From positions 1 to 24,303 of the forward strand of contig JASHQT010000099.1 of NCBI GenBank assembly GCA_030039005.1: a DNA stretch of 24,303 nt, in the 5' to 3' direction. Position numbers and translations under genes: made by a program. Origin of the DNA: Bryobacteraceae bacterium. GTDB taxonomy: Bacteria; Acidobacteriota; Terriglobia; Bryobacterales; Bryobacteraceae. Below the pieces are notes generated by a model. It saw only the letters and a list, made by a program, of their open reading frames with translations. It ran no database searches and had not been told where the DNA came from. This document shows positions 2,574 to 24,303 of this stretch, in pieces (position 1 is the stretch's first letter; each line of letters begins with the position of its first letter).

Positions 2574-2609
2574 GGGAGCCGCGACCGTGAGGGACCGGAA
2601 GTAACAACC

Positions 2610-3281: not shown

Positions 3282-3291
3282 TCGGTAGCGT

Positions 3292-5898: not shown

Positions 5899-6067
5899 AG
5901 CGTGGAGTCCCGCCCTCATCCGGGCCTAGGCCCCGCCCGAAACGATCCGCGAAGCCGGTGTGGAGTGACAGCGTGCATCAAGTCCGGCATTAAAGGTAAA
6001 GTATCGCATCTTGGAAGGTTGCGGACATAGGCTTTGCAAAGTCTGGAACTGATAGTACTCCAGGGGG

Positions 6068-6116: not shown

Positions 6117-6725
6117 TTGACAAAACTCTCACTGTTTACGGGGCTTGTGCTGGCTCTGGGGATTCCATGTTTCGGTAGCAGCTTCTACATTGGTTCAGAC
6201 ACAGCCTGCTTCTACGGCTTCAGCGATTCACCTTGTACGCCTGTATCAACTGAGACGGGACTCGGCTCTAACCTGAGCGGGAATCCAATTCTGGATTATA
6301 CGCCGGACGCGAGCTTCGCCGCTCCTGAGTCCGGTGGCTCCGTTGAACTCGGCAATTTCTATGTGCTTCCTTCGTTGCTGGGTGCCGAAGGTGGATATTT
6401 CACTCTCGACATTTCGTTCACCGATCCCACCGATGGCAGTCAGACCTTTACCGCCACTACCTTGGGCTTGGTGGTTTTCGGTTTGTTGGGTGCCGAAGTG
6501 ACGTTCGACCAGCCAACCACGGAAGCCTTCAGCTACTCCGGCGGGGCGTTCGATGTTTCACTGCCTAGCTCAGCGATTCTGATCGGATCGGGGGATACGG
6601 TCGCGCTCGACGCTACCATCACACCCATTATTACGCCTGAGCCCGATTCCGTAGCCGCGGTGCTCGGCGGACTGATTCTTCTCGGAGTCGTCGTCCGCCG
6701 GAAGGTCGCTCACAAAGTTTCCTGA
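6117..6725 (+). CDS. PEP-CTERM sorting-domain protein, secreted
   Basis: Exported surface or matrix protein of 202 residues. It has an N-terminal signal peptide (residues 1 to about 19, hydrophobic core LFTGLVLALGI), a Gly/Ser/Thr/Asp-rich, largely beta-type body, and a C-terminal PEP-CTERM signal: PEP at 174-176, a hydrophobic helix at about 179-193 and the basic stop RRK at 194-196. Proteins with this tail are processed by a membrane exosortase; none is encoded in the window. The start is TTG at 6117, supported by the GGAGGA ribosome site 5-10 bases upstream, the promoter at 6068-6096 and the signal peptide. A short repeated LLGAE (in the segments near residues 88 and 123) is the only internal repetition seen. 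The body matches no domain I know. The next gene, a peptidase, follows after 48 bases and is probably cotranscribed. Confidence 0.78.
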   Translation: MTKLSLFTGLVLALGIPCFGSSFYIGSDTACFYGFSDSPCTPVSTETGLGSNLSGNPILDYTPDASFAAPESGGSVELGNFYVLPSLLGAEGGYFTLDISFTDPTDGSQTFTATTLGLVVFGLLGAEVTFDQPTTEAFSYSGGAFDVSLPSSAILIGSGDTVALDATITPIITPEPDSVAAVLGGLILLGVVVRRKVAHKVS

Positions 6726-10523: not shown

Positions 10524-11171
10524 TTACCTTGTGGCCCAGGCTGCCAGGCGCTTCCGCACCAGGATGCCGAGAGCCGCTAGGCCGCACAACGGAAGAACGG
10601 TGGAGGGTTCCGGCACGGAACTCACTGCGCCGAAACTCGCGTTCGATACCTGCGAGCTGATCGCGTATCCGTTCTGATTTCCGAGCGTGATGTCGGTGAG
10701 CGTGAGACTTCCGCCACCGGGGCTGTTCGCCGTGAAGTCGAGGACGGCCAAGGTGAAAGCCGAAGCCTGATCGCTGGTGAGAGTGGCGGAAGTGTCGAAG
10801 GAGACTTCGATCAGCGTCTCGGCATCCGTCCCGGCGCTCGCTTCGGTGACGCTATAGCTCGATCCGCCAATCGCCAACTGGTCGCCTAATGTGGGATCGC
10901 CGAAGGTGACGTTGTCGAACGTAAAATTACTGGGGAAATCGACAGTAATGTCATAGGTGCCGAGCGCCGTACCGCTTCCCAGCCCGCTGATATCGAGATC
11001 CACCGAAGTTGTGGAGCCGACGTTGACTTCCGGCGAGGTAGGCACGATGGAGAGCGTGGCTGCGGCGGCTGTCTGAAGGCACGCGAAGCAGACGAAAATC
11101 GCAAGCGCACTGGCGCGTAACGCCGCCGCCCGCGAGGTTAGGGAACGGGGGGAGCTGTCCTCTTTAAGCAT
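10524..11171 (-). CDS. PEP-CTERM protein with cohesin-like beta domain
   Basis: Exported protein of 215 residues. It has a signal peptide (about 1-38, hydrophobic ALAIFVCFACLQTAAAA), then one beta-rich domain opening TLSIVPTSPEVNVGSTTSVDLDISGL, a pattern I associate with cohesin/carbohydrate-binding-like folds found in many PEP-CTERM proteins. It ends in a textbook sorting tail: VPEPST (186-191), a hydrophobic helix (about 192-205) and a basic end RKR (206-208). A membrane exosortase from elsewhere in the genome should process it. I start it at ATG 11171, where GAGGA lies 7 bases upstream and a normal signal peptide results. A longer TTG frame from 11237 has no ribosome site and would bury the signal sequence. 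It lies 115 bases after the FkbH-fusion gene on the same strand and could be read from that operon or from the weak promoter at 11249-11278. Confidence 0.83.
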   Translation of the reverse strand: MLKEDSSPRSLTSRAAALRASALAIFVCFACLQTAAAATLSIVPTSPEVNVGSTTSVDLDISGLGSGTALGTYDITVDFPSNFTFDNVTFGDPTLGDQLAIGGSSYSVTEASAGTDAETLIEVSFDTSATLTSDQASAFTLAVLDFTANSPGGGSLTLTDITLGNQNGYAISSQVSNASFGAVSSVPEPSTVLPLCGLAALGILVRKRLAAWATR

Positions 11172-11178
11172 TATTTGG

Positions 11179-11183
11179 TCCTC
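11179..11183 (-). promoter_or_regulatory. Ribosome binding site deciding the PEP-CTERM start
   Basis: On the - strand this reads GAGGA, 7 bases before ATG 11171. It supports that start over the longer TTG frame beginning at 11237. Confidence 0.6.
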
Positions 11184-11248
11184 GTGTTTTAAATCAAGAG
11201 CTAGCAAAATGTTACCGAGGAAGCTGGAGCGTGACAACCCTGAACCGT

Positions 11249-11286: not shown

Positions 11287-14073
11287 CTAAATAGTACTTG
11301 TTTGCGCTGCTTGAGCCGCAATTTCGGGCGCGTGTAGTTCGACGTGCGGAGGAAGAGGGCGAATCTCCGAGATGGAGATCTCCCACTGATGAGGCGAGGT
11401 CTCAGTGAACCCGCTCCGCAACAGAAAGTCCTTCACCTGTGCGTTGCGCGGACCTTTGACGAAGGGGGCGACGAGCTTTGTGGCGCCCTGCAGACGGCCG
11501 GTTTCGCCCATGGCATAGAGGAAGGCGTCTTCTACGCCGCGGCCGAGAACCCGGCAGCTCATCAGGAGGGTGTCGATCTCGGAATAGCCTGCTTGGGGCC
11601 GGATCGCGCAGACCCCCACGAGGCCGTATTCGCCGAAACGGTCACTGGCCCGCAGAGTGAGGACAGCCGCATCCGAGCCGAGCGCCCGCATCTCGCCGAC
11701 GGTGCGCCGTTTGAGCGAAAGGTTAAACTGATTGGTACGCTGGGTGAGCTGGGCGACGCGCGGCCATTCCTCGTTGCCCGCGTGATTGATGTCCACGCGA
11801 AGCTGCAGACTTGCCAGAAAGCCTTCCAGGCTGGGAGCCTCGTTCAGTTCACGTTGGCGGACGCCTTCCTCCTGGATCATGCGCGTGCGAGAGGCGTCCT
11901 CGTCGGTGACCTTGGCGGCGTCGAACAGCCAAAGCCGCGAGAGCGTTTCACAGTACTCGGCGGGATCGGGCGGGAGCGGGACAACGTGCACTTGGGGAAG
12001 CGAAGATTGGACTTCGTTGCGCACGAACGGGTCGTCATCCAGGAAAACGAACGAATCGATGCCGACGTTCAATTCCGCGGCCAACGAACGCAAATTCTCG
12101 GACTTCGGCATCCAGTTGACGCGCCAGGCGGCGATATCGGAGGGCCTCAGGATCATTTCCGGATGGCGCTCGAAAACGTCGCGCACGTCGCGCTCCTCAT
12201 TCTTGCTGACTATGACAAGTAATAATCCGCGTTCTTTCAGACGCTGGATGTGGCGCTGGAACATCTGAAAGCCGCGGCCGGCGCCGTCGGAGCCGAGTTC
12301 GATGCCTTCCAAACCCACTTCGCCGACTACCCCGCCCCACAGCGTGTTGTCGCAATCGAGCGCCAAGACTTTCGACGGGCTGCGGCGAGACGAGCGGATC
12401 CGCCTAACCAGCTCGATGGCGAGGTCGCGGTACACCTGTGGAGAATACGGACCGCGCGTCAGGATTTCGCTTTGATTGGACCGCGAGTTTGCGACGCCGA
12501 GGCGCTCCACGACGCCGGAAAAATCGAGCAGCTCGACGCCCGGGAGCCCTTCCGCCACTTCTTGCCAGCGTGCCCGGATCGAACCCACGGAATCGGCGGC
12601 GCTGAAGGCGGAAACCAGGGGTGGTAGCGTGCCGACCATTAATTGACCGGACGGCTGCGCGGCGAAATTTTCCAGCGCTGCGAGCAAACTGTCCAGCAAA
12701 CCGCCGGAAGCGTGAGCGGCCAGATCTTCCGGACGCGTCAGCACTAGGTTGATCCCGTCGGGGTTAGCGTAGAAGGGCCCCTCGCGATCGAGCAAAGCCT
12801 GGAGGATCTGGTTGTATTCGGCGAAGACCGGCTCGATCTGGAAACCGAATGCGCGGCCCCAGAGCTTGAGCGGGGCGGCGATGGCATGCAGCGTGAAACT
12901 GGCGGCCATGACGACGCGAATGGGTTTGCCGCCGGAGGTCTGCTCGAAACGCGCGGCCAGCGCGCGCGTGGCTTCAGCCGGATCGAGCAACGGCAGCATG
13001 TCCAAATCGTTTGGCAATGTGACGGCTTCCGGAACTTCGTGCTGTGTCGGTACGATGGCGCCTTGACCGGCGAGCTTCCTTCCCTCGGCTAATTGCGCGA
13101 CATCGGCGAGGCTGCGGATTCGTAGCACGTCGGCTGCGTCCACGGGAGCGCCGTAGCGGGAGTAGATGGCGGCGGCGATAGCGATTTGACCGAGGGAATC
13201 CCAGTTCGCGCAGTTGGCCTGCGAAAAATCGCCGGACTGTTCGCCTTCGGGAATGTTCAGCGCTTCGATGACGAGACGGCGAATGTTGGGGCCGACTGGA
13301 GTGGTGTCGGCGGCCGCTGTTGCAGCGGGTGTTTCCACGGGAGCGGCGCCGTCCCGATGGCGCAGAAAACGGGCCGGATGTCCGCCCCAAAATTCGTTGG
13401 CCGGAACGATGGTGAAAGGTTCCAAAATGGAGCCGGGCTCGATCACTGCGTCATGGCCGATCACACAGCCGAGCGGGATGCGCGATTCGCCTCCAATGGT
13501 GGCGCGATCGCCGATGGTTATCGGGGCGGTAATAAAAGCCATGGCTCCGTCCAGGCGAGGCGACTGCGCGTGCGCGACAATCGACGCCCGGCCGCCGACC
13601 AGCGCTCCTTCACCGATAGTGGTAAGGTCGGGGTCGTAAAGATAACCCCACAAACGAGCCCGCTTGCCGACGCGCGCCGATGGCGCATAGGCTCTCAGGT
13701 ACAGATTCCCGAAAGTGGCGGAATGGCCGAGCGCGCCCGCGATCGGCAGGGCCTTCAAGACCGCGAAAAGAGAATAACAGAAGAGGGCCGTGATCAACCC
13801 GGGATCGGCGTCCGGGCTGCTTTTTCCGGGCTCAAACACGGCGTGGCTAGGCTTGGGATGGCGGCGGCCAAGTCGCGCGCAAGTGAAGCCCCACAGCCAC
13901 AGCGCAATCAACAGCCAGGCGAAGTAAAGCACCGGCGCGAGGATCAGCCAGTGATACCACTGCCAATACCGGGCTCCCGCCAGAAACGTCAAGGCAACCA
14001 CCATGGCTGAAGAGATCACCATCGGCGTGATCACTAAAACAAGCGTGATAAGGTCGACGATCAACTCCGTCAT
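11287..14073 (-). CDS. Membrane-anchored fusion: beta-helix acyltransferase-like domain, carrier domain and FkbH-type glyceryl transferase
   Basis: This 928-residue fusion has four parts. Residues 6-33 and 43-63 (and perhaps 94-115) are membrane helices. Residues about 120-240 are a left-handed beta-helix of hexapeptide repeats (TIGEGALVGGRASIVAH, ITIGDRATIGG, EFWGGHPARFLR), like acyltransferase-type end domains of some NRPSs; His168 is a candidate catalytic residue. Residues about 260-335 are a carrier domain with WDSL, Ser293 being the phosphopantetheine site. Residues about 383-905 are FkbH-like: an SGNH-like N-part, then a HAD-IIIC phosphatase core (ALDCDNTLWGG, Asp573 and Asp575; Ser623-Lys624; FLDDDP, 677-682), then a GNAT-like end (QRTNQFNLSLKRR, CRVLGRGVEDA). 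FkbH enzymes dephosphorylate 1,3-bisphosphoglycerate and load glyceryl onto a carrier thiol; here the carrier is built in. ATG 14073 has GGAG about 8 bases upstream. It is the last clear member of the biosynthetic operon. Confidence 0.85.
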   Translation of the reverse strand: MTELIVDLITLVLVITPMVISSAMVVALTFLAGARYWQWYHWLILAPVLYFAWLLIALWLWGFTCARLGRRHPKPSHAVFEPGKSSPDADPGLITALFCYSLFAVLKALPIAGALGHSATFGNLYLRAYAPSARVGKRARLWGYLYDPDLTTIGEGALVGGRASIVAHAQSPRLDGAMAFITAPITIGDRATIGGESRIPLGCVIGHDAVIEPGSILEPFTIVPANEFWGGHPARFLRHRDGAAPVETPAATAAADTTPVGPNIRRLVIEALNIPEGEQSGDFSQANCANWDSLGQIAIAAAIYSRYGAPVDAADVLRIRSLADVAQLAEGRKLAGQGAIVPTQHEVPEAVTLPNDLDMLPLLDPAEATRALAARFEQTSGGKPIRVVMAASFTLHAIAAPLKLWGRAFGFQIEPVFAEYNQILQALLDREGPFYANPDGINLVLTRPEDLAAHASGGLLDSLLAALENFAAQPSGQLMVGTLPPLVSAFSAADSVGSIRARWQEVAEGLPGVELLDFSGVVERLGVANSRSNQSEILTRGPYSPQVYRDLAIELVRRIRSSRRSPSKVLALDCDNTLWGGVVGEVGLEGIELGSDGAGRGFQMFQRHIQRLKERGLLLVIVSKNEERDVRDVFERHPEMILRPSDIAAWRVNWMPKSENLRSLAAELNVGIDSFVFLDDDPFVRNEVQSSLPQVHVVPLPPDPAEYCETLSRLWLFDAAKVTDEDASRTRMIQEEGVRQRELNEAPSLEGFLASLQLRVDINHAGNEEWPRVAQLTQRTNQFNLSLKRRTVGEMRALGSDAAVLTLRASDRFGEYGLVGVCAIRPQAGYSEIDTLLMSCRVLGRGVEDAFLYAMGETGRLQGATKLVAPFVKGPRNAQVKDFLLRSGFTETSPHQWEISISEIRPLPPHVELHAPEIAAQAAQTSTI

Positions 14074-14135
14074 CTGTTTATCTCCGGGCTTGGGTTAGCG
14101 CGCATGATTGGGGAGAGTTCAGCGTGATGCGTGCG

Positions 14136-15590
14136 TCATGATTCCTGATCCGCCGCGGCCTGCGCTGCCAGCTTGCGTTGGATGCCCGCGGTGGCTCCGC
14201 GGTTCAGGGCATAGGGCGAAATGAGCGCGATGGATCCGATCAGCATCGCACCGGGAAGCACACCATATAAGATCGCCAGACGGTTGGCGGTGAGAGCGGA
14301 CTGAACGGCCGAACCGGCCGCCAGGTGCACGTAATATTGGAGGACGAATCCGCCGATGAGCACGGCAAAGCCGGAGGCTACTTTTTCGCCGAAATTCAGC
14401 ATGCCGAAAAAGACGCCTTCGCGGCGCGAACCGGTGACCAGCTCATCCTGATCTGCGACATCAGCGAGCATGGACGCGGGTAGCACCCATAAGGCACTGG
14501 CGAAAACACCCGCCAGGGCATAACCACCGATGAGCGGCCAAGCCTTGCCGATGCCGAGCGGCTTACCGGGTCCGATGAGGTAGGTGGCGGCGATGAGCAT
14601 CACGGCGGTGCCCAGCATTCCGGTGGCGTAACAGGTTCGTTTCTCATAGTGGCGTGCCAACGCAAGCCATAATGCGATTCCAACGCATGCCCCGACCCCA
14701 AATGCCACTTGCACCAGGCTGAGAATGCCCGCTTGATGAACCTGGGCGCACCAGGTGAAGAAATGAACCGCCAGTCCGGCGTTGATGATCACCGCGGTAA
14801 AGAACACGGTGTAGGAGAGCCAGATGGAGCGGAAGGCGCGATTGGCGAGGGCCAGGTGAAAGCCGCGGTAAAAACCGAGCATATGCAGGGTGCCTTGGTG
14901 GCCTCCGGGATCCTGGTGCCCGGAGGTGCCGAAGAAAGCGACCAATCCGGTGACGGTGAGCAGCGCGCCGAACACCAGGCCCATGCGGGCGTAATTCTGA
15001 TAATCGAGCTTGGGATCGATGCCGGAGGCGCTATGGCGGAAGAAGAGCAGAAACGAGAGCGCGGCGGCGGCCAGAGCGCCAATCAAACCGCAGATGGAAC
15101 GCACGGCGTTCACGACCGTGCGCTGGTCGTAGTCCTGCGTCAGCTCGGCGCCCAGACTCAAATATGGAATGCGATAAATTGCGGTGGTGATACGAAAAAG
15201 GATCAAAATGCATGCAAACCAGCGCAGCAGTCCATGGCCGGTGCTCAGAGCGTGCGGCGGGAAGAACAGCGCCGCGAAACACGGTCCCATGGTGCAAGCG
15301 CCGAGGAGCATGTAAGAGCGCCGGCGGCCCAGCCGGTGACGGCTGTGATCGGAGCGGTATCCGATTAACGGATCGATGACGGCGTCGAGCGTCAATCCCA
15401 AGGCCGAGACCAAGCCCAGGAGCGGGGCGGGCAGGCCCAATACAGAGTTGTAAAAGAAGAGCAGGAAGAGTCCGAACAGTACCATGCTGCCGGTGATGGG
15501 AATTTCGCCGATCCCGTACAAGATGATACGAGACAATCCGGCTGATCTCACTGGTGCGGGTGCGGCCAGGGAGGCGATTTGCGGCTGCAT
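14136..15590 (-). CDS. MFS transporter of the GPH/MFS_2 cation-symporter type
   Basis: Polytopic inner-membrane transporter of 484 residues with about 12 hydrophobic segments. The family hallmark is between helices 2 and 3: Asp69 and Asp73 (LDAVIDPLIGYRSD), then Asp81 and GRRR (88-91), as in melibiose-type glycoside/cation symporters. A related conserved segment, ADVADQDELVTGSRREGVFFG, follows the mid-protein helices. GPH members carry sugars and glycosides, while related MFSD2 proteins carry lysophospholipids, so a glycosylated or lipid-like product or precursor is possible but not shown. The start ATG 15590 has a perfect AGGAGG (- strand, 15598-15603) 7 bases upstream. It sits 65 bases after the phosphatase gene and 62 bases before the FkbH fusion, inside the operon. 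Confidence 0.87.
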   Translation of the reverse strand: MQPQIASLAAPAPVRSAGLSRIILYGIGEIPITGSMVLFGLFLLFFYNSVLGLPAPLLGLVSALGLTLDAVIDPLIGYRSDHSRHRLGRRRSYMLLGACTMGPCFAALFFPPHALSTGHGLLRWFACILILFRITTAIYRIPYLSLGAELTQDYDQRTVVNAVRSICGLIGALAAAALSFLLFFRHSASGIDPKLDYQNYARMGLVFGALLTVTGLVAFFGTSGHQDPGGHQGTLHMLGFYRGFHLALANRAFRSIWLSYTVFFTAVIINAGLAVHFFTWCAQVHQAGILSLVQVAFGVGACVGIALWLALARHYEKRTCYATGMLGTAVMLIAATYLIGPGKPLGIGKAWPLIGGYALAGVFASALWVLPASMLADVADQDELVTGSRREGVFFGMLNFGEKVASGFAVLIGGFVLQYYVHLAAGSAVQSALTANRLAILYGVLPGAMLIGSIALISPYALNRGATAGIQRKLAAQAAADQES

Positions 15591-15655
15591 CAGCGGACCT
15601 CCTGGGTGCGGGGTAAAGCCATTGGATCTGGCGAGCGCCGGTTCATAGATCCCGG

Positions 15656-17248
15656 TTACTCGATATACCCCAAGTCACGCAGGCGTTCCAGGATGGCCTG
15701 CTCGTCTTCGCTGCTCAACGCGGCGGGGGTGGTATCGGCCGAAGCGGAAGCCGCAACGGCGCCGCGGCGCACCAATTGCCGCGCGGCGGGATCGTATATT
15801 TCCTCGGGAACGCGTCCTTGCATTTCTTCGGGGACCGCAAGACCAAGGCTGTGCAGAACCAGCGGCGCGACATCGAGGATGGAGAGCTCGCTGGCGTTTT
15901 GGCCCGCGGGAATGCCGGGGCCGGCGGCTGAAAAAATTCCTACCGGATGGTGTTGGCCCGCGATCTCGTCGCGCCAGGACAGAACTTCGTTGGAAGGCAG
16001 AATCGAGACGCTCGCGTGGCCCGTGAGACCTAACGTCAGGTCCGGCGCGACATCGCCCAAGGGACCCGAGAAAGCCTCTTCGCGGGTCACCACGCGTTCG
16101 ACTACGGGTTGCCTGGTGTCGGGATCGGTGAAATTCAGCAAATCGCCGATCAGGCGCTCGCGTAAGGATTCGTAATCGTCCGCGGGCACGCCGCCGTGAC
16201 CGTTCTTAGCGCCATGAATGAAGATTCCATTGCTGGTAGGTGTGGCGGCGAAGGCGGTGGTACGCTGCCAATCGATCATCCAAGTGTGGCGGGCTACCTG
16301 GCTGACTCCCAGGAGAGCGCCGCCCGTATCCCACTGGGCTGCTTCGGCGGACCATCTTAAATAGCCCTGCTTCTCCAGCCACGAATTGAGATGGAACACG
16401 CGGCGCGTGGAGCAGAAACCGTGGTCTGACGCCATGATCACGGTGGCTTCGGGGCCGGCAATGGCGCACATGCGGCCGATCAGGTCGTCGAGGCTGCGGA
16501 AATATTCGATGCACAGCGCGCGGGTCTGGTGTTCCCACTCCTGTTCGAGCGGGCGGGCGTCTTCGGGGCGCAGGAAACGCCAGCAAAGATGCTGGAGCTT
16601 GTCGACGCCGTCCAACAGGACGGCCGTGAGGTCGCTCGGATTTTGTTCAGTGAGATGGCGAAAGATCTCGAACCAGTTGCGTTCGCGGCGCGTGTGTAGC
16701 TCGATCCAGGGGCCGAACTGTTCGGGATCGGCGCAGCCCTCCGTGGTCTTCTCTTCGAGTTTGATGTCCATGGCGAGTTCGCGCGGATTAAAGCCCGGTA
16801 CGGTTTTGAGAGTGTCCATCAAGGATTCCGGCCAACACGCCAGCCGTAGCTGGCGCCACGGCACCCAACCGGGGACCACATAGCCATTCAAGCGCGGTGG
16901 CGGAAACATGGAAGGAAAATTGAGTGCGGTGACGCGCAATTCGGCCTGCGAGGCGAGGTCAAAGATGGTGGGCGTTTTCACGTCGTGCGAAGTGAAAAAG
17001 CGGAGGTGCCGGTCTTCGGCGGACTCCATGCGGAAGAAATCGAAGACACCGTGGTTGCCGGGCGTGCGGCCGGTCATCAGGGAAGTCCAGGCGGGCGGCG
17101 TCAGCGGAGGCACGATGGTTCGCAAGGGAGCGCGAGCGCCGCGGGCCCAAAGCGCACCAAGCTGCGGCATCACACCGCTCTCGACCATGCGATCGAGAAT
17201 AGTGAAGGTAGCGCCGTCCAGCCCGAGGAGAAGAGTTCGGATTGGCAT
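15656..17248 (-). CDS. Alkaline-phosphatase-superfamily phosphodiesterase/phosphatase (NPP-like)
   Basis: Metal-dependent hydrolase of 530 residues related to nucleotide pyrophosphatases/type I phosphodiesterases. The two-metal site can be traced: Asp11 (LLGLDGATF), nucleophile Thr50 in TPPAWTSLMTG, Asp216 and His220 (DKLQH), Asp275-His276 (ASDHGF) and His433/His434 (GQHHPVG). There is no Cys/Ser formylglycine motif (C/S-x-P-x-R), so it is not a sulfatase. No signal peptide is seen, so the enzyme is probably cytoplasmic. A low-complexity Ala/Ser stretch (about 495-512) precedes a C-terminal ERLRDLGYIE tail that recurs in homologues from acidobacteria. The gene starts 3 bases after the stop of the large synthase, so it is cotranslated or coupled with it and likely acts on the same product or a phosphorylated or nucleotide-activated intermediate. 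The substrate cannot be read from sequence. Confidence 0.85.
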   Translation of the reverse strand: MPIRTLLLGLDGATFTILDRMVESGVMPQLGALWARGARAPLRTIVPPLTPPAWTSLMTGRTPGNHGVFDFFRMESAEDRHLRFFTSHDVKTPTIFDLASQAELRVTALNFPSMFPPPRLNGYVVPGWVPWRQLRLACWPESLMDTLKTVPGFNPRELAMDIKLEEKTTEGCADPEQFGPWIELHTRRERNWFEIFRHLTEQNPSDLTAVLLDGVDKLQHLCWRFLRPEDARPLEQEWEHQTRALCIEYFRSLDDLIGRMCAIAGPEATVIMASDHGFCSTRRVFHLNSWLEKQGYLRWSAEAAQWDTGGALLGVSQVARHTWMIDWQRTTAFAATPTSNGIFIHGAKNGHGGVPADDYESLRERLIGDLLNFTDPDTRQPVVERVVTREEAFSGPLGDVAPDLTLGLTGHASVSILPSNEVLSWRDEIAGQHHPVGIFSAAGPGIPAGQNASELSILDVAPLVLHSLGLAVPEEMQGRVPEEIYDPAARQLVRRGAVAASASADTTPAALSSEDEQAILERLRDLGYIE

Positions 17249-17251
17249 GAG

Positions 17252-20200
17252 TTAAGATTCGCCCTTTCGTTGGGGGCTGAGTTCGAGATTCGCTCGGTGG
17301 GCAGTCGCGGGACCTGAGTAGGCGGCATAGATGTAATCGCCCCGCCGGCTGGTGGGGACCACAAATTCTACTGCCGCGCCGGGAGCGGCGACGCGAACGG
17401 CCCCGCTTGCCAGATCGAAACCCGCGATGCTCAAGCGTTCGGGCACGTACTTGAGCGCATCCGCGAGCGCACGTTTAGCGCACTGGGTGGACAGGTCGTC
17501 TTCCGCGACATCCCGCTTGGTTCCACCCCAGCGCGCCATGGAAACTCCTACGCGATCGCCGGGGTGAAGCGATGCCATCGCGATGGCTCTTTCGCCATCG
17601 TAGGCGGCCGAGACGATGGGCTGGATACCCAGGCGCGTGACCCAACCTCCGCCCACGATCAGCTCGCCTCGCGCATTGACGTCAATCAAGATGTCGGCGG
17701 GAAACAGGCTGATGCCGCGGCTTTGCGTCATCAGGCGCCGCACCGCATCTTTAGCTACGCAACGGACGAGCAGCCATTCGGCACGGGCAGGATCGGCGGG
17801 ATTCATCTCCTCCCAATGCTTCTTCTCCGAACGGCTCAGCATGAGGCCGGCGACCATTTTCCCCCAAACGCCGAAGCTGGTCTGCAAAAACCCGGCGGGG
17901 AAGCGATCCAGGCACACGCATGTGGTATCCGGGCGGCCATTGGCCAATTCGGGCGTGTCGGTGGAGAGCACGACGTCGCGCGGTTCAGCGCGGAAATTCC
18001 TCACATCGGGGGGCTGGAAGAAACGGCGGTCCGTCCAGTCTTCCACACGATACAGTACCTGGCCGGACAGATCGAGAACTTCAAGGTCGCAGCGCAGATC
18101 GCGCTCGGTGATTTCGTGGATAATCACGCGGCTCTCGATGCGCGTGCCGACGGGAGGCATGGCGGAGAAGCACTGGAGGCGGCGAAAGCGATAAGGGAAC
18201 AGGTCACACGTCGGATCCACCTGCTCCAGAGACCAGAATCCGCTGATCTGCCCGGCGGCATCGAGAGTTACCGGATCGATCACGAACCGCAGGTCGGGTT
18301 TTCCCAGCAGCAGCAGATCGTGGCGCAGAATTTCCATGGTGGCGGTGCAGCCGTTGGTCCCGGTGCGATCGAGCCGGATCACAGCGCGCAGGCGGGGGCC
18401 ATGGAACAAGCCCCAGGGGTACAGAGTGCCTTCCTTCCACTTGGATATCTTGGGCTCCTGGAGTTCGAAGGGAAGCGGAGCGGGAGCGGCGGGATAGCGC
18501 TCGGCGAACACCACCGTGGATTCCATCCACAGAGGACGGATGGCCTTGCCTTCCACAGCCTCGCGCATTTCAACACGCACTACGCCAGGCTCGATCTGAG
18601 TGGCCGTCATCTCCAGCACGGGGAAGGGAGGATCCAACGCGACCCAGCGCTGCGAGCGCATGTCGCGCATCTCTACGACGACCTTACCGGGCTCCAGCAA
18701 AGCCGCGGCTTCGGAGAGGATTTCCATGCTGACGGTGAGTGGAATGACCGCGTGTCCGATTAATTCGGGGTCTTCGACCGAAAGATCCCGGCCGAGGGCG
18801 TGATGTTCGTAGAGGGGTTCGAGCGCTGTGCGGTAGATGCTGCGGGCGCGCACGCCGGGAACTAATTCGAGAACTTGGGTGATGAATGGTAGTTGCTGAT
18901 GCGACGGTGCTGGCGCGGCGGCTTTCGCCGGGATCGCTGCGGGAGCTGGTGCATGGGGCGCTACGGCGGACGGTTGTGGGGTGCGTCCAGTTAGCGCCGC
19001 AGCCATTACCTGTTGCTGCATCGCGAGAAACTGCTGCATGGTGGTGAAGTGCCGCTCCATCACCGAACCGCGCGGCGAAACCGCCGGAGATATGCTGGCG
19101 GGGGACGGCGGCGCGAAAGCGAGGGCCGGTACGGGGGTGATCGGGGCTGCGAGCGGAGCATGTCCATTCGCACTGCGCCCCTTCGCCTCGACAGCGGGAG
19201 CAGCAGCGGGCGCCGCGGCTGGCGCGGGTTGTTCCCGGCGCGGGAGCTTGAAATCAGCCGGCAGCGTAAGTGGTTCGATGCAGAGTTTCAGGCGCGTCTT
19301 GGGCTTGCGGACGGCATTCGGATCGACAGGGCGCGGATCGCGACGGCTATACAGATGCTCCAGCCGCAGCGGAACTCCGTGCGCGAATAGTATGGCCAGT
19401 GCATGGTTCAGTTGCAAAATCCCGGAGCGGTGCTGGACGTTCGAAGCCACGGCCAGATAGTTCTTGCCGCGCAACACATCCTCGATGAAGCTCTTCAGAT
19501 TGCCGCGCGGGCCGACCTCCAGGAAGATGCGCGCGCCATCTTGGTACATCTTTTCGATAGCTTCCCGGAAGCGGACGGTTCTGGACCAGCCGCTGGCGGC
19601 GATTTGGCGGATTTCGTCAGGATCGTCGGGTAAACGTTCCGCGGTGACGCAGGAGTAGAGTGGCAACCGGGGCTTGCCGATGCGCATGGCGCGGAAATAA
19701 TCCTGCAGCCGTTCGCTGAACACACGGAACCAGGGAGAATGGTAGCCGCGCGCGAAAGGCAGTTTCTGGCAGATGGCGGGAGTGGAAGCGAGATCGCGCT
19801 GCACTTCGTCGATGGCCGCCGGCTCGCCGCAGAGCACTACTTGATTCGGGCAATTGTCGATGGCGAGATACAAGCGGCCTTCGCTTGCGGCCACCATTTT
19901 TTCGAGATGCTGGTGATCGGCGCCGCCGACCGCTAGAAGCATGCATTCGGGGATCCGGTTCTCCGACTTCATCTCTTCGAAGATCCGGTTCACCGCGCGA
20001 ATGCTCGCGGTCAGCTCGTGCTCGTCCTCTAGCTGAACGGCCTCGGCGGAGGCCAGAGCCGTATGTTCGCCCGTGCTATGGCCCACCATCATGTCGGGCT
20101 GGACGCCCAGGTTGCCGAGCAGCCGGAACATGGCGCCGTTGGCTGACAGCACGGCTTCGGTTCCCAGGTCCATGGACCACAGACGCTCGGAGGAAGAGAA

Positions 20201-22111
20201 CAGGGGCGGCGGCACCAACAGCTCGCTCGGCAAATAACCGCGCGGATGGTCCAGGTAGGCGCGATCCGCGAAATCGAACACCTCCCGGACCTCGGGGAAG
20301 TGCAGGGAGAGGTCCACCAGCATGTTGGTGTATTGCGCGCCCTCGCCGGGGAAGACAAAAGCCAGCTTGCCTTCGGCGGCGAGCTGCTGGCGGAAATAAT
20401 AGATGCCGTCGGCTTGGCGGATTTTGGCCGACTTGGGATCGGCTAACCGTTTGGACGCTTTTTCCAGCTTCTCGAGCAAGTCCTGGCGCGAGGTAGCGAC
20501 GATGCCTAGCCGCTCGGGGCCGAAGGGTTTGGTGTTGACCGACCAGGCCAGGTCCTTGAGCGAAAGCTCGCCCGGAAAATCCGCGATCATGCGGCCGAGC
20601 GCCTGTGCTTCGGCGGCGAGCCCGGCGGCATCGGAAGCCGTCAGCGCGAACAGTTCGCTATCCCAGCGTTGGTGCAGCAGCGTGGCGGGAGGCTCAGGAA
20701 GGTACTCTTCCAGCACGGCGTGCGAGTTCACGCCGCCGAACCCGAAGGCGTTGGCGCCGGCGCGGCGCGGACGGTCGCGATGCGCGTGAATCCAGGGGCG
20801 CGTCTCCGTATTGATGTACAAGTTGCTAGTGTCGGCTTCGAGCTTGGGGTGTGGTTTCTCGCAATGCAGCGTGGGTGGGAGGACCTTGTGATACAGCGAC
20901 AACGCGGTCTTGATGATGCTCGCCATTCCGGAAGCCGGGATGGAATGGCCGATCATGGATTTCACCGAGCCCAAAGCGCAGCGCGGCAGCTCGCCGGCAC
21001 GCTTGCCGAAGACGCGGTTCAAAACTTCCAGTTCGGTCGCGTCGCCGACGAGCGTAGCGGTACCGTGGCCTTCGATGAGCTCGATGGTGACAGGGTCTAT
21101 GCCGGCCATTTCGTAGGCGCGCCGGATGGCCAGCTCTTCACCTTCAGGCCGTGGCGCGAGCAAGCCCAACGCGCGGCCGTCGCTCGATACGCCCATGCCT
21201 TTAATGACGGCATAAACGCGGTCCTGATCCCGTTCGGCGTCTTCGCGGCGCTTGAGCACCAGGAAACCCGCCCCCTCGCTAAGCAGCGTTCCGTCGGCTT
21301 CGCTATCGAAGGGACGAATCTGTCCCTTCCGCGAGAGTCCCTTCATCTGAGAAAAAATGATCAGAATGGGCGAGGAGTTGGCGGCGTGCACGCCTCCGGC
21401 CAGCGCCATGTCGCAGCGCCCGGTGAGCAACTCGCGGCACGCGATGTCCAGCGCCAGGAAAGCAGAGGCGCAGGCGCCGTCGACGTTGAAGGTGGGCCCC
21501 ATCAGGTTCAGCCGGTTAGCGATGCGGCCGCTCACGATGTTGGGCACCGCGCCCGGCAGATTATCCGTGGTCAGATGCGGCATACTGGCGCGCAAGTTCT
21601 GGCGGATGAGCGCCAGTTCTTCGGGCGTGTGTTCGGGGTGAAGCTGTTTGAGGATCTGAATGGTGGCGTCGATGGATACCCAGCGCTGGATCACCGTGGA
21701 GTGGCCGCGGCTGATGTATCCGCCGAAGCCGAGAATCACGCCCGTGCGTTCGCGGAAGCGATCCATGCGGCGCGGGTCCGCGTAGCCTGCGTCGGCCAGA
21801 GCTTCCGAGGCCGTGCGGATCGACAAGAAAGAATCGGCAGCCGAACCCTCCACTGAACCCGGCATAACGCCGAATTCGAGTGGGTCGAACTCCGCCAGCT
21901 CCTTCAGGAAGCCGCCGCGCTTGGTGTAGGAGCGGTCATCGGCGCCGGAATCCGGATCGTAGAACAGCTCGGGGTGCCAATCCTCGGGCGCGTCGGAGAT
22001 GGCGTCCACCTTGTTGACGATGTTCTCCCAGAACTGCTGCAAGCTGCCCGCGCCCGGGTACAGGCACGACATTCCGATGATCGCGACATCGCCTTGGACG
22101 GCAACACTCAC
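17252..22111 (-). CDS. Pfa-like polyketide/lipid synthase: KS-AT-linker-DH with degenerate PPTase-like C-terminus
   Basis: Multidomain synthase of 1619 residues. KS (about 1-470): active triad Cys214 (GACASA), His349 (GHGTAT), His389 (MIGHS). AT (about 580-905): Ser679 in GHSTGE, His791. Ala/Pro-rich linker (about 958-1075) with an embedded Met/Gln helix (1018-1040). DH double hotdog (about 1085-1380): His1103/1104 in EHHALG and Asp1284 in DAAGQ. The last 200 residues resemble the phosphopantetheinyl transferase end of enediyne-type PKSs (EWLLVRCVAKDAV at 1445-1457), but the Mg2+/acid motifs are lost: GVSMA at 1522-1526 in place of GIDVE, and KRA at 1546-1548 in place of KEA. It has no carrier or KR domain; these are in the preceding gene, whose stop overlaps this GTG start as GTGA. 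GGGAGA lies 6 bases before the GTG. It probably works iteratively with its neighbour. Confidence 0.9.
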   Translation of the reverse strand: MSVAVQGDVAIIGMSCLYPGAGSLQQFWENIVNKVDAISDAPEDWHPELFYDPDSGADDRSYTKRGGFLKELAEFDPLEFGVMPGSVEGSAADSFLSIRTASEALADAGYADPRRMDRFRERTGVILGFGGYISRGHSTVIQRWVSIDATIQILKQLHPEHTPEELALIRQNLRASMPHLTTDNLPGAVPNIVSGRIANRLNLMGPTFNVDGACASAFLALDIACRELLTGRCDMALAGGVHAANSSPILIIFSQMKGLSRKGQIRPFDSEADGTLLSEGAGFLVLKRREDAERDQDRVYAVIKGMGVSSDGRALGLLAPRPEGEELAIRRAYEMAGIDPVTIELIEGHGTATLVGDATELEVLNRVFGKRAGELPRCALGSVKSMIGHSIPASGMASIIKTALSLYHKVLPPTLHCEKPHPKLEADTSNLYINTETRPWIHAHRDRPRRAGANAFGFGGVNSHAVLEEYLPEPPATLLHQRWDSELFALTASDAAGLAAEAQALGRMIADFPGELSLKDLAWSVNTKPFGPERLGIVATSRQDLLEKLEKASKRLADPKSAKIRQADGIYYFRQQLAAEGKLAFVFPGEGAQYTNMLVDLSLHFPEVREVFDFADRAYLDHPRGYLPSELLVPPPLFSSSERLWSMDLGTEAVLSANGAMFRLLGNLGVQPDMMVGHSTGEHTALASAEAVQLEDEHELTASIRAVNRIFEEMKSENRIPECMLLAVGGADHQHLEKMVAASEGRLYLAIDNCPNQVVLCGEPAAIDEVQRDLASTPAICQKLPFARGYHSPWFRVFSERLQDYFRAMRIGKPRLPLYSCVTAERLPDDPDEIRQIAASGWSRTVRFREAIEKMYQDGARIFLEVGPRGNLKSFIEDVLRGKNYLAVASNVQHRSGILQLNHALAILFAHGVPLRLEHLYSRRDPRPVDPNAVRKPKTRLKLCIEPLTLPADFKLPRREQPAPAAAPAAAPAVEAKGRSANGHAPLAAPITPVPALAFAPPSPASISPAVSPRGSVMERHFTTMQQFLAMQQQVMAAALTGRTPQPSAVAPHAPAPAAIPAKAAAPAPSHQQLPFITQVLELVPGVRARSIYRTALEPLYEHHALGRDLSVEDPELIGHAVIPLTVSMEILSEAAALLEPGKVVVEMRDMRSQRWVALDPPFPVLEMTATQIEPGVVRVEMREAVEGKAIRPLWMESTVVFAERYPAAPAPLPFELQEPKISKWKEGTLYPWGLFHGPRLRAVIRLDRTGTNGCTATMEILRHDLLLLGKPDLRFVIDPVTLDAAGQISGFWSLEQVDPTCDLFPYRFRRLQCFSAMPPVGTRIESRVIIHEITERDLRCDLEVLDLSGQVLYRVEDWTDRRFFQPPDVRNFRAEPRDVVLSTDTPELANGRPDTTCVCLDRFPAGFLQTSFGVWGKMVAGLMLSRSEKKHWEEMNPADPARAEWLLVRCVAKDAVRRLMTQSRGISLFPADILIDVNARGELIVGGGWVTRLGIQPIVSAAYDGERAIAMASLHPGDRVGVSMARWGGTKRDVAEDDLSTQCAKRALADALKYVPERLSIAGFDLASGAVRVAAPGAAVEFVVPTSRRGDYIYAAYSGPATAHRANLELSPQRKGES

Positions 22112-22123
22112 CTGGCATCTCCC
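22108..22123 (-). promoter_or_regulatory. Translational-coupling junction (GTGA) with ribosome site
   Basis: On the - strand, GGGAGA (22118-22123) lies 6 bases before GTG (22109-22111), and the TGA of the upstream synthase (22108-22110) shares two bases with that GTG. This fixes the start of the 1619-residue synthase and implies coupled translation. Confidence 0.7.
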
Positions 22124-24303
22124 AACGCGTGAAGATAAGTTTGGCCGGCGGGGAGCGCGTTCTTACCCCAGGGACCGCCACCCAAGATGATCACGGGCTC
22201 ACGCGAGGAGCCGGTTTCGATTTCCCGCAGCGCGGCCTCGCTGCCTTCGCGCAGCGGGATGATTTCGATGCCCAGCGCCATGAACTGCTTGCGGATGTGC
22301 TCGGGCACCATGTTGGCCTGATCCCAGGGACCCCAGTTGACGGATACCACGCGGCTGGGCCAGGCGCCCGCCAGGCGCATCGCCATGCCGTTCATGATTC
22401 CGTTCGCGGCGCCGTAATCGGCCTGGCCGCGGTTGCCGAAAGCGGCGGTAATGGAAGACATCAGCAGCAGACAGCGCAAGCCCTCCGGCCGCAGTTTTCT
22501 TTCCAGGACGTAAGCACTGTCGGCCTTGGTGTGCACCACGCGGTCGAACGATTCAGGCGTCTTGTCGCGAATGAGCTTGTCCTCGATAATCCCCGCGCCA
22601 TGGATCACCACGTCCAATCGGCCGTGGCGGGCATACACTTGATCGATCACCGCGCCAAAGGCTGCTTCCTCGCGAACGTCGACGCCGTGGTATTCGACGC
22701 GCGCGCCGGTGCGCTTCAGCGCGTCCAACGTGCTGCGAATTTCGCGCTCCTTCAGCAAACGCTGGACGGAAACTTCGACGTCGGCGGGGCGAACGCTTGC
22801 GCCGGAGGCTCGCAGCTGCTGGAGGACCACTGCTTTCAGGCGGTCCTTGTCGGCGATGCTCGCGGTTTCGGCTGGCTCGGGAGCTTCGGGCAGTGCGGTC
22901 GCGCCTGCGATGACCAGCGTGGGATGGTAGCGTTCGGCGAGCAGACGCGCGATTTCGGCCGTGATTCCGCGCGCGCCGCCGGTAATCATGAACACCCAGT
23001 CGGAGCCGATGGCAAGGCGCGGCTCACCGTTCAAATCGGCGCAGCGCATCAACGCGGTTAGACGGCGATCGCCGGGGAGTCCCACTTGCAGCGTGTCGTC
23101 GGTGGAACCGAGTTCATCGAGCAGCTTCTCTTTCAACACGCCGACCGGATCGGACAAATCCAGATCGACGACCTTACAGCGCGCTTCTGGGAACTCGAGA
23201 GCGACGGTCTTGGTGAAATCGGCGACGCCCTGATGTGTGGGTGGTGTGGCGACTTCGGGCTGTAAGCCGAATACGCCAGCGCGTCCGGTGGCGACGGCGA
23301 TCAATGCTCCACCGGCTGGTCCAGTCTGGCGGATGTCCTTTTCAGAGGTCTGCAAGAGCCCGTAGAACGACTTGATGTCCTGCTGGAGATGGTCGCGCCA
23401 TTCCTTGAGATTGCTGCGGGGATCGCCGGCTTCGATGCGTAGCGGCAGCAGATGAACCAGCGCACCGATCGCGCCGTGGCGGGCGCGGACGAACTGCACC
23501 AGTTCTTTCACGATGACGGCATTCGTCAGGTCGCCGGTCACGACCTGGTCCGTGGTCAAAGGTCCGTTCCTGCTGTGCCGCACCAGCACTACCTTTTCTC
23601 CGGCGCGCGTCCAGGTTTCCGCGACGCCGGCGGCGATGCCGGTTTCGTCGTCGGTGATCAACGATACACGTCCGGGATAATGCTTTGGCATGCCTCGACG
23701 CGGGCAATCTGCGGCCGCGAACGTGAAGCGAGGAATTTCGGCGTGGGGCTGCGCGGGAGTAGCCGGCACGGCCGCTTCGGCAGCTCTCAGTGCCGCGGCG
23801 ATGACGCTCGCGATTTCGCGCAGGCTGGGCGCGGCAATCAGCTTTTCCATCACGGCCTGTAATTTGGTCTGTTCTTCGGCGGTGCAGAGCTGCTGATAGG
23901 AACTTAAAATCTCGACGCGCTTGATGGAATCGATGCCGAGGTCGGCTTCGATGCTCGCGTTCACATCCAGGATTTCGGCCGGGTATCCGGTGCGCTCGCT
24001 CGCGATGCGCACCACTTCGGCAAGCACGTCGCGCGCCGGCGCCGCGGCAACCGGTACCGGTGTGGGCGCAGGCGTTGACGGAGCGGGCATCGATGAAACG
24101 GATACCGCGACGGGAGGTGCCGCCGGAGAAGCGCCGGCGCCCAACGCCGCGATGATCACGCTCGCGATTTCGCGCAGGCTGGGCGCGGCAATCAGCTTGT
24201 CCATCACGGCCTGCAATTTGGTTTGTTCTTCGGCGGTGCAGAGCTGCTGATAGGAGCTTAAAATCTCGACGCGCTTGATGGAATCGATGCCGAGGTCGGC
24301 TTC
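22108..24303 (-). CDS. Pfa-like synthase, C-terminal part: tandem acyl carrier domains and ketoreductase (partial, 5' end outside window)
   Basis: The gene enters the window already in frame, so only its last 731 residues are seen. They contain two acyl carrier domains with DLGIDSIKR motifs, whose phosphopantetheine serines are visible residues 8 and 126, spaced 118 residues apart. Ala/Pro-rich linkers join them. A ketoreductase follows: a non-catalytic half (about 200-430) and a catalytic Rossmann half (about 435-720) with TGGARGITA (441-449), the LMSS serines (616-617) and Tyr630/Asn634 of YGAAN. The long insertion with REIRSTLDALKRTGARVEYHGVDV is typical of PfaA-type KRs. PfaA proteins read KS-AT-ACPn-KR, so a KS and AT upstream of the edge are likely but unseen. 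It overlaps the next synthase by GTGA, which suggests equimolar production. The total number of carriers is unknown. Confidence 0.88.
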   Translation of the reverse strand, partial: EADLGIDSIKRVEILSSYQQLCTAEEQTKLQAVMDKLIAAPSLREIASVIIAALGAGASPAAPPVAVSVSSMPAPSTPAPTPVPVAAAPARDVLAEVVRIASERTGYPAEILDVNASIEADLGIDSIKRVEILSSYQQLCTAEEQTKLQAVMEKLIAAPSLREIASVIAAALRAAEAAVPATPAQPHAEIPRFTFAAADCPRRGMPKHYPGRVSLITDDETGIAAGVAETWTRAGEKVVLVRHSRNGPLTTDQVVTGDLTNAVIVKELVQFVRARHGAIGALVHLLPLRIEAGDPRSNLKEWRDHLQQDIKSFYGLLQTSEKDIRQTGPAGGALIAVATGRAGVFGLQPEVATPPTHQGVADFTKTVALEFPEARCKVVDLDLSDPVGVLKEKLLDELGSTDDTLQVGLPGDRRLTALMRCADLNGEPRLAIGSDWVFMITGGARGITAEIARLLAERYHPTLVIAGATALPEAPEPAETASIADKDRLKAVVLQQLRASGASVRPADVEVSVQRLLKEREIRSTLDALKRTGARVEYHGVDVREEAAFGAVIDQVYARHGRLDVVIHGAGIIEDKLIRDKTPESFDRVVHTKADSAYVLERKLRPEGLRCLLLMSSITAAFGNRGQADYGAANGIMNGMAMRLAGAWPSRVVSVNWGPWDQANMVPEHIRKQFMALGIEIIPLREGSEAALREIETGSSREPVIILGGGPWGKNALPAGQTYLHALGDAR
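23804..23949 (-). repeat. Direct repeat copy A (acyl carrier domain, distal)
   Basis: This 146-base segment encodes the core of the second visible carrier domain. It matches 24158-24303 at 142 of 146 bases, offset by exactly 354 bases (118 codons). Only one of the four differences changes an amino acid (Glu/Asp in the MEK/MDK position). Flanking linkers are unrelated. Confidence 0.9.
24158..24303 (-). repeat. Direct repeat copy B (acyl carrier domain, proximal, cut by window edge)
   Basis: This is the partner of the copy at 23804-23949. The repeat runs off the window, so its true length and the number of further copies are unknown. Confidence 0.9.

What the first reader, a model, noticed from the sequence alone, without database searches (positions are those of the whole stretch)
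11287..24303. Pfa-like lipid/polyketide operon with a built-in glyceryl-unit enzyme: candidate undescribed pathway
Five tightly spaced - strand genes encode tandem-ACP/KR, KS-AT-DH, an AP-superfamily hydrolase, a GPH transporter and a membrane FkbH-ACP-beta-helix fusion. Tandem GIDSIKR carriers and the KR type are seen directly and are known hallmarks of PUFA-synthase-like secondary lipid synthases. FkbH enzymes are known to feed glycerate-derived units into polyketides. I know of no described product from this combination. The inferred product is a long acyl or polyketide chain extended or capped with a C3 glycerate unit at the membrane.
Basis: partly seen in the sequence, partly recalled or inferred. 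Interest (0 to 1): 0.8.

Follow-up and report, generated by a model that had tools for sequence, protein, structure and literature searches.

The report
Lipid-synthase operon beside FkbH fusion enzyme
A bacterium, probably from soil, carries a multi-enzyme machine resembling those that build omega-3 fatty acids, followed by a membrane enzyme predicted to handle a glycerol-derived unit, but the related loci that could be read have the machine without that enzyme, so the proposed joint product is unproven.

Summary
The five minus-strand genes exist as described. Genes 1-2 belong to a Pfa-like iterative "secondary lipid" synthase. The window cuts gene 1; in relatives it is ER(FabK/PfaD-like)-KS-MAT-ACP(n)-KR, and the nearest passes the PfaA cut-off. 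Gene-2 relatives occur in 12 of 257 genomes of one order (probably Bryobacterales). The AP-superfamily hydrolase is beside it in 10, followed in 10 of 10 readable loci by an alpha/beta hydrolase that the window lacks. GPH recurs in two. The membrane fusion (helices, LacA-like beta-helix, ACP, FkbH) is at none of ten loci read over 15 kb, and 80 fusion-profile loci show no DH/PPTase, AP or close GPH homologue. It is a widespread module of its own (79 of 84 hits). Yet the only one of the 257 genomes with a full fusion is also a synthase genome, on another contig. A joint glyceryl-lipid pathway is possible, not shown. New variant of a known kind.

The parts
22108..24303 (-). Synthase subunit A, C-terminal fragment (runs off the window): two tandem ACPs (GIDSIKR) and KR; in relatives the gene is ER(FabK/PfaD-like)-KS-MAT-ACP(n)-KR, with or without DH
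   Evidence: relatives
17252..22111 (-). Synthase subunit B: KS with Cys/His/His kept, PfaB-like AT without the malonyl Gln/Arg pair, DH with His and Asp kept, decayed PPTase
17252..17944 (-). Decayed AcpS/Sfp-type PPTase domain at the C-terminus of subunit B
   Evidence: profile of four sequences, AcpS E 1.8e-8; top 20 Foldseek hits are AcpS
15656..17248 (-). AP-superfamily phosphohydrolase (PF01663), core Asp/Thr/His residues kept; conserved partner of subunit B
14136..15590 (-). GPH-type MFS_2 transporter; also beside the synthase in two relatives (G159, G056)
11287..14073 (-). Membrane helices - LacA-like left-handed beta-helix (His168) - ACP (Ser293) - FkbH (HAD-IIIC Asp573/Asp575, Cys840) fusion

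Best explanation
The locus holds a two-subunit iterative acyl synthase of the Pfa (PUFA-synthase-like) kind with its usual AP-superfamily phosphohydrolase and a transporter, followed by a separately evolving enzyme. Subunit A, cut here, is predicted to load malonyl units onto tandem ACPs, condense them and reduce them with its KR and N-terminal FabK/PfaD-like ER. Subunit B adds KS and DH activities and, with a PfaB-type AT, is predicted to take the finished chain off the ACPs and pass it to an acceptor. B's own PPTase has decayed, so ACP activation must come from elsewhere. Acceptor, chain length and the substrate of the phosphohydrolase are unknown. The downstream membrane protein is predicted to make glyceryl-S-ACP from 1,3-bisphosphoglycerate on its own carrier domain. 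Its LacA-like beta-helix could then transfer the C3 unit, or another acyl group, to a membrane acceptor. It belongs to a widespread family mostly found away from this synthase, so it is most likely a neighbouring or recently recruited module. Shown: domains, conserved residues and synteny. Inferred: every chemical step.
For: Nearest A subunit (G159, its N-terminus cut by a contig end) passes the PfaA model (1240.5 bits, cut-off 1010.1) and has NMO/FabK-type ER, KS, AT, four PP-binding stretches and KR. AT: 7 of 7 A subunits keep Gln and Arg at the malonyl columns, 27 of 27 B subunits compared lack both; PMC12895367 (passages) reports loss of this pair in bacterial PfaB and names PfaB the terminal acyltransferase. 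KS and DH residues kept in B. PPTase: the His of hShxH, the Asp of GIDxE and the Glu of WxAKE are lost in the window and its six closest homologues (P0213-P0218) and kept in G159, G056, G222a, G130, P0220, P0221, P0224, P0226-P0229. AP hydrolase adjacent in 10 of 12 genomes. FkbH: Asp573, Asp575, Lys657 and Cys840 identical in 24 of 24 aligned sequences (the window's plus 23 of 84 hits). The beta-helix aligns with galactoside O-acetyltransferase at an invariant His168. Fusion apart from the synthase.
Against: Same-strand spacing of 62 bases and no clear terminator between GPH and the fusion favour one transcript. The single genome of 257 with a full fusion (G175) is also a synthase genome, and another synthase genome (G149) has a contig-end FkbH piece 55% identical to the window's; both have short synthase contigs. 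The missing alpha/beta hydrolase suggests a changed pathway end here. No assay data exist.
Confidence: 0.62

Rival explanations
1. Joint pathway: the fusion replaces the conserved alpha/beta hydrolase as the finishing enzyme, so that the Pfa-like acyl chain is capped by, or esterified to, a glyceryl unit at the membrane.
For: In 10 of 10 readable relatives' loci an alpha/beta hydrolase directly follows the AP gene (nine, G026); in the window it is absent and GPH plus the fusion stand there. Spacing of 65 and 62 bases. The one full fusion among 257 genomes is in one of the 12 synthase genomes. Fusion loci elsewhere often hold biosynthesis genes: PKS-type genes in 5 of the 18 best loci, with SDR, glycosyl-, sulfo- and acyltransferases among the neighbours scanned.
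Against: 0 of 10 synthase loci (9 genomes) read over 15 kb hold the fusion; 0 of 80 fusion-profile loci carry the DH/PPTase, AP or GPH genes at E 1e-6. GPH comes with the synthase without the fusion in G159 and G056, and in G159 both the alpha/beta hydrolase and GPH are present. Hits of the fusion and of B share no contig length except the window's own.
Confidence: 0.25
2. FkbH here feeds a hydroxy/methoxymalonyl or tetronate-type pathway, as in actinobacterial polyketides, with the missing partner genes outside the window.
For: FkbH domain far above cut-off with its own ACP. Some homologues carry MaoC plus SDR or methyltransferase domains at the C-terminus (P0016, P0018, P0052; P0019, P0022, P0034, P0041, P0053). 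The glyceryl-ACP routes are set out in PMC7489565 (passages).
Against: No dehydrogenase pair, O-methyltransferase or FabH-like protein among the ten window proteins scanned; the only extra KS (4633-5919) seems to have lost its three catalytic residues (by eye).
Confidence: 0.08
3. The first two genes are not a lipid synthase but an aromatic or complex polyketide PKS.
For: Gene 2 matches generic PKS models and solved PKS chains; its own PfaA score is below the cut-off (603.9 against 1010.1).
Against: Tandem GIDSIKR carriers, PfaA-level score of the nearest A subunit, fused FabK/PfaD-like ER and PfaB-like AT.
Confidence: 0.05

Closest known systems
Pfa synthases and 'secondary lipid synthases' (PMC3098273: section 7 and passages read)
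   Same: Tandem ACPs, KR, KS-MAT in one subunit, a second KS-AT/DH subunit, FabK/PfaD-like ER, PPTase linked to the synthase.
   Different: Two subunits, with ER fused to A (in relatives) and PPTase fused to B (decayed in the window). Described Type R (Koribacter, Solibacter) is KS-MAT-CLF-ACP(3-6)-KR plus a separate PPTase gene; its product is unknown. Type M (Frankia) may be nearer, since Frankia homologues of B carry KS, AT, DH and PPTase domains, but the figure showing its layout is not held.
PfaB terminal acyltransferase (PMC12895367, passages read)
   Same: AT without the malonyl Gln/Arg pair. The paper gives Asn for Arg in one PfaB; the window has Val at the aligned column with Asn next to it.
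   Different: Part of a KS-AT-DH-PPTase-like protein instead of stand-alone AT or KS-AT.
FkbH glyceryl-ACP enzymes (tetronate and methoxymalonyl pathways, PMC7489565, passages read)
   Same: HAD-IIIC/FkbH domain with conserved residues and a carrier protein.
   Different: Fused to membrane helices and a LacA-like beta-helix; no FabH-like or dehydrogenase partner found in the window.
Pls/PosA terminal domain (TIGR02353)
   Same: Weak match over the beta-helix region (37.9 bits).
   Different: Far below the cut-off of 423.1; no adenylation domain found.
Galactoside/maltose O-acetyltransferases (1kqa, 1ocx)
   Same: Same beta-helix type, with the conserved His aligned to 1kqa (its catalytic role in LacA is recalled).
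   Different: Membrane-bound and fused to ACP-FkbH; donor probably an acyl-ACP rather than acetyl-CoA (inferred).

Membership tests
Pfa-type secondary lipid synthase | Tandem ACP domains in one protein | tested here: met
   Two GIDSIKR carriers in the visible fragment; up to four in relatives, fewer in some
Pfa-type secondary lipid synthase | Subunit A scores as PfaA (TIGR02813) | tested here: inconclusive
   Window gene is truncated: 247.1 bits against 1010.1; nearest relative G159 A scores 1240.5 (the only relative tested)
Pfa-type secondary lipid synthase | PfaD-like enoyl reductase | tested here: inconclusive
   Outside the window; NMO/FabK-type N-terminus in G159 A
Pfa-type secondary lipid synthase | PfaB-like AT without the malonyl Gln/Arg pair | tested here: met
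   signature from PMC12895367
Pfa-type secondary lipid synthase | Linked active PPTase | tested here: not met
   Domain present but its motifs are lost. PMC3098273 lists a nearby PPTase for 14 of its 20 types, so the feature is not required
Type R of PMC3098273 | KS-MAT-CLF-ACP(3-6)-KR followed by a separate PPTase gene | tested here: not met
   A KS-AT-DH-PPTase-like gene follows instead
Type M of PMC3098273 | Gene layout as in its Figure 1 | not testable with these tools
   Figure not held; only Frankia homologues of B seen
FkbH | TIGR01686 above cut-off, HAD Asp pair and Cys kept | tested here: met
   302.7 against 146.65; residues invariant in 24 of 24; which residues are catalytic is recalled
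FkbH | Forms glyceryl-S-ACP | not testable with these tools
   Needs an enzyme assay
Glycerate-utilisation (tetronate) operon | FabH-like condensing enzyme and Agg4/Agg5 homologues beside FkbH | tested here: inconclusive
   None among the ten window proteins scanned; the sequence beyond 24303 is unseen
Pls/PosA | TIGR02353 above cut-off | tested here: not met
   37.9 against 423.1

The most novel reading that the evidence does not exclude
In this lineage a membrane LacA-like O-acyltransferase with its own glyceryl-loading FkbH-ACP engine took the place of the conserved alpha/beta hydrolase at the end of a Pfa-type operon. Chains that relatives release by hydrolysis would here be joined to a glycerate unit at the membrane, while the synthase's own PPTase became dispensable. 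This would be an undescribed class of glyceryl lipid with a new termination mode.
Probability: 0.17. Interest if true: 0.7.

Novelty: new variant of a known kind. Interest (0 to 1): 0.42.

Why it matters
The synthase-phosphohydrolase-alpha/beta-hydrolase set is a conserved lipid pathway of unknown product, probably in Acidobacteriota, and its parts now suggest testable steps (PfaB-type release, phosphatase, transporter). The beta-helix-ACP-FkbH fusion is a widespread enzyme whose predicted product, a membrane-transferred C3 unit, can be assayed directly. Keeping the two apart until linkage is shown prevents a wrong pathway from being annotated.

Tried and rejected
Considered and rejected: (1) that the C-terminus of gene 2 is only DH: relatives show a PPTase there (PF01648 in precomputed domains; motifs). 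Pfam finds nothing in the window's own copy, which fits decay. (2) That the fusion is a Pls/PosA synthetase (far below cut-off). (3) That the fusion generally travels with an MFS gene: MFS neighbours were seen in L005, L013 and L015, and by cluster in L014, but neighbours in the other 14 of the 18 best loci were scanned only in part, and the MFS_2 in L015 is only 23% identical to the window's GPH; left as a lead. (4) Literature for a described beta-helix-FkbH fusion or a product of this operon: the listings showed none; only the held open library was searched, and most listed papers were not opened. (5) PMC13291983 (hybrid PUFA-synthase survey) was searched for FkbH, Acidobacteri and glycer: zero hits each. 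(6) The DH-PPTase search over 399 genomes of the class gave 4 genomes, 3 of them already known; the fourth, G371 (L151), was not followed up apart from AT and DH hits.

Limits: no genome is held for the window, so the taxon (probably Acidobacteriota, Bryobacterales) is inferred from homologues named Bryobacteraceae/Bryobacterales. One search lists 120 of 2,173 AP homologues. The three homologue searches scored only the 8,000 or so candidates sharing most words. One search scored three candidates per genome and up to eight, so a split fusion could be missed. The model of the fusion has weak confidence over the beta-helix (pLDDT mostly 55-65, about 40 in the linker after it); its listed Foldseek hits appear to be mostly HAD and GNAT-like folds, none a beta-helix enzyme by title.

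Mended on re-check: G159 A is cut at its contig end (I had called it complete); the fusion-absence count now covers only loci read over 15 kb; G175 as both synthase and fusion genome and the G149 fragment are now told; odds moved slightly for that (best 0.65 to 0.62, joint pathway 0.22 to 0.25, novel case 0.15 to 0.17).
Full report
Observation. Gene 1 (22108-24303) runs off the window and shows two ACPs and a KR. Gene 2 (17252-22111) is KS-AT-DH. Gene 3 (15656-17248) is a PF01663 AP-superfamily protein. Gene 4 (14136-15590) is an MFS_2/GPH transporter. Gene 5 (11287-14073) contains an FkbH domain at 302.7 bits against a cut-off of 146.65. A PEP-CTERM protein ORF starts 49 bases behind gene 5 on the same strand, so the 3' end of the operon is not certain.

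Subunit A. Relatives of gene 2 were searched with its last 520 residues. They occur in 12 of 257 genomes of the order of G001, the genome behind a contig titled Candidatus Solibacter. Reading around them shows a complete upstream gene of 2,584-2,884 residues in six loci (G222a, G178, G130, G222b, G174, G247) and one of 2,598 residues in G159 that is cut at its N-terminus by the contig end. The G159 protein reads NMO (FabK/PfaD-like ER), KS, AT, four PP-binding stretches and KR, and passes the curated PfaA model (1240.5 bits, cut-off 1010.1); no other relative was put to that model. In G159 and G222a the gene ends after the KR, as the window's fragment does; in G178, G130, G222b, G174 and G247 a further DH-like stretch follows.

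Subunit B. In the window KS Cys, His and His, the AT Ser and His, and the DH His and Asp are in place. In 27 of 27 B subunits compared (the window's, 19 of the 62 listed hits, 7 locus sequences) the AT lacks the Gln/Arg pair that 7 of 7 A subunits keep. PMC12895367, of which I read passages, reports that this pair is absent from bacterial PfaB, with Asn in place of Arg in one case, and that PfaB is the terminal acyltransferase. In my alignment the window has Val at the Arg column and Asn at the next. By analogy B should transfer the finished chain and not malonyl; this is inference.

A decayed PPTase. The last 230 residues of B match nothing in Pfam. The same region in relatives carries PF01648, and a four-sequence profile that includes the window finds AcpS structures (E 1.8e-8). 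A model of the window's copy (mean pLDDT 63) has holo-ACP synthases as its top 20 Foldseek hits, best E 2.5e-3. The His of hShxH, the Asp of GIDxE and the Glu of WxAKE are kept in G159, G056, G222a, G130, P0220, P0221, P0224 and P0226-P0229 (with Phe for Ile in two and Gln for the motif's Glu in G130). They are lost in the window and in its six closest homologues P0213-P0218. P0219, P0222, P0223, P0225, P0230 and the more distant G222b, G174 and G247 are also truncated or degenerate, so the loss is not unique to this lineage. The window's organism must then activate its ACPs with another enzyme.

Neighbours of B. An AP-superfamily gene is adjacent in 10 of 12 genomes (in G026 at one of two loci; in G056 divergent from B); the two others are G149, whose contig ends there, and G232, where it is absent. 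Its core residues are at least 98% conserved over 130 aligned sequences. An alpha/beta hydrolase directly follows the AP gene in 10 of 10 loci where that stretch was read (nine, G026; in G175 the contig ends first), but no match is found in the window. A GPH transporter like the window's (54% and 49%) lies at two loci, G159 and G056; a third MFS_2 of 36% lies about 12 kb downstream of the AP gene in G130.

The fusion protein. Order: helices (residues 2-31, 39-71 and further ones), beta-helix, ACP, FkbH. A nine-sequence profile of the first part matches galactoside and maltose O-acetyltransferases and gamma carbonic anhydrases; His168, invariant (24 of 24; 9 of 9), aligns with the His of 1kqa that I recall as catalytic. 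The best solved relative of the FkbH part is 3slr. Asp573, Asp575, Lys657 and Cys840 are invariant. Of 84 database hits (one is the window's own protein), 83 match the ACP, 83 the FkbH part, 80 the beta-helix, and 79 both beta-helix and FkbH. Some carry two ACPs (P0017, P0020, P0021), some C-terminal MaoC plus SDR domains, some a methyltransferase.

Do fusion and synthase belong together? Against: 0 of 10 synthase loci (9 genomes) read over 15 kb or more hold the fusion. 1 of 257 genomes has a full-length relative (G175, 50%), and 1 of 257 has the beta-helix part (the same genome); its 7.5-kb contig has an SDR before and a DnaJ-type protein after the fusion and no synthase gene. 0 of 80 fusion-profile loci carry the DH/PPTase, AP or GPH genes at E 1e-6 in the flanks held, though L015 has a distant MFS_2. 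Shared contig lengths: AP with B four times, fusion with B only the window's own, fusion with AP none; an offset control gives 0.05-0.06 by chance. For: the spacing, no clear terminator, the lost alpha/beta hydrolase, and co-occurrence: G175 is one of the 12 synthase genomes (12 of 257 is about 5% by chance), and G149, another of the 12, has a contig-end FkbH piece 55% identical over 196 residues. The synthase contigs of G175 and G149 are 3.5-9.4 kb long, so linkage there is open. I conclude that the fusion is most likely an independent module, and I keep the joint pathway as a minority reading.

Mechanism in steps. Shown: gene order, domains, conserved residues. Inferred from families: malonyl loading by A, condensation, reduction, dehydration by B's DH, release by B's AT, dephosphorylation of an unknown intermediate by the AP enzyme, transport by GPH; for the fusion, glyceryl-ACP formation as set out for FkbH-like enzymes in PMC7489565 (passages), and O-acyl transfer by the beta-helix.

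Known or new. PMC3098273 (section 7 and passages read) describes twenty types of such synthases, including Type R in Koribacter and Solibacter and Type M in Frankia, with uncharacterised products. The window does not fit the Type R layout; Type M could not be tested. Frankia and Streptomyces homologues of B with KS, AT, DH and PPTase domains show the subunit itself is not new. I therefore rate it a new variant of a known kind, with moderate interest.

Noticed in passing
window 4633-5919 (-): An isolated FabF-like protein whose three KS catalytic residues all look lost (SDVAS at the Cys motif, no motif His residues; by eye), like a chain-length-factor or pseudo-KS, without a partner KS beside it.
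   Followed up: partly
window 6774-8438 (+) and 8446-10308 (-): Two convergent pro-kumamolisin/subtilase-type peptidases end to end, near two PEP-CTERM-like proteins (10524-11237, and 6117-6725 by eye).
   Followed up: no
window 576-4044 (+): Sulfate-assimilation genes: CysN-like GTPase, then by eye a CysH-type reductase (2610-3281) and a TSUP-like permease (3292-4044).
   Followed up: no
P0016, P0018, P0052; P0019, P0022, P0034, P0041, P0053: Beta-helix-ACP-FkbH fusions extended by MaoC plus SDR domains or by a methyltransferase; other homologues have two ACPs. They suggest that the glyceryl unit is processed further in some lineages.
   Followed up: partly
contigs of 83123, 47666 and 70210 bases: Two different copies of the fusion appear to lie on one contig in three cases (inferred from equal contig lengths).
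   Followed up: no
L013, L017: In a cyanobacterial and an Akkermansiaceae genome, full-length fusions lie near PKS genes ending in a thioester reductase (NAD_binding_4); in L017 a sulfotransferase lies between.
   Followed up: partly
L137 and L141 (G175): Stand-alone beta-helix proteins of about 265 residues related to the fusion's N-terminus, in the one genome that holds both a full fusion and the synthase.
   Followed up: no
G222b, G174, G247 (L114, L116, L118): The PPTase domain of subunit B is degenerate in these more distant relatives too, so integrated PPTases in this family seem to decay repeatedly.
   Followed up: no
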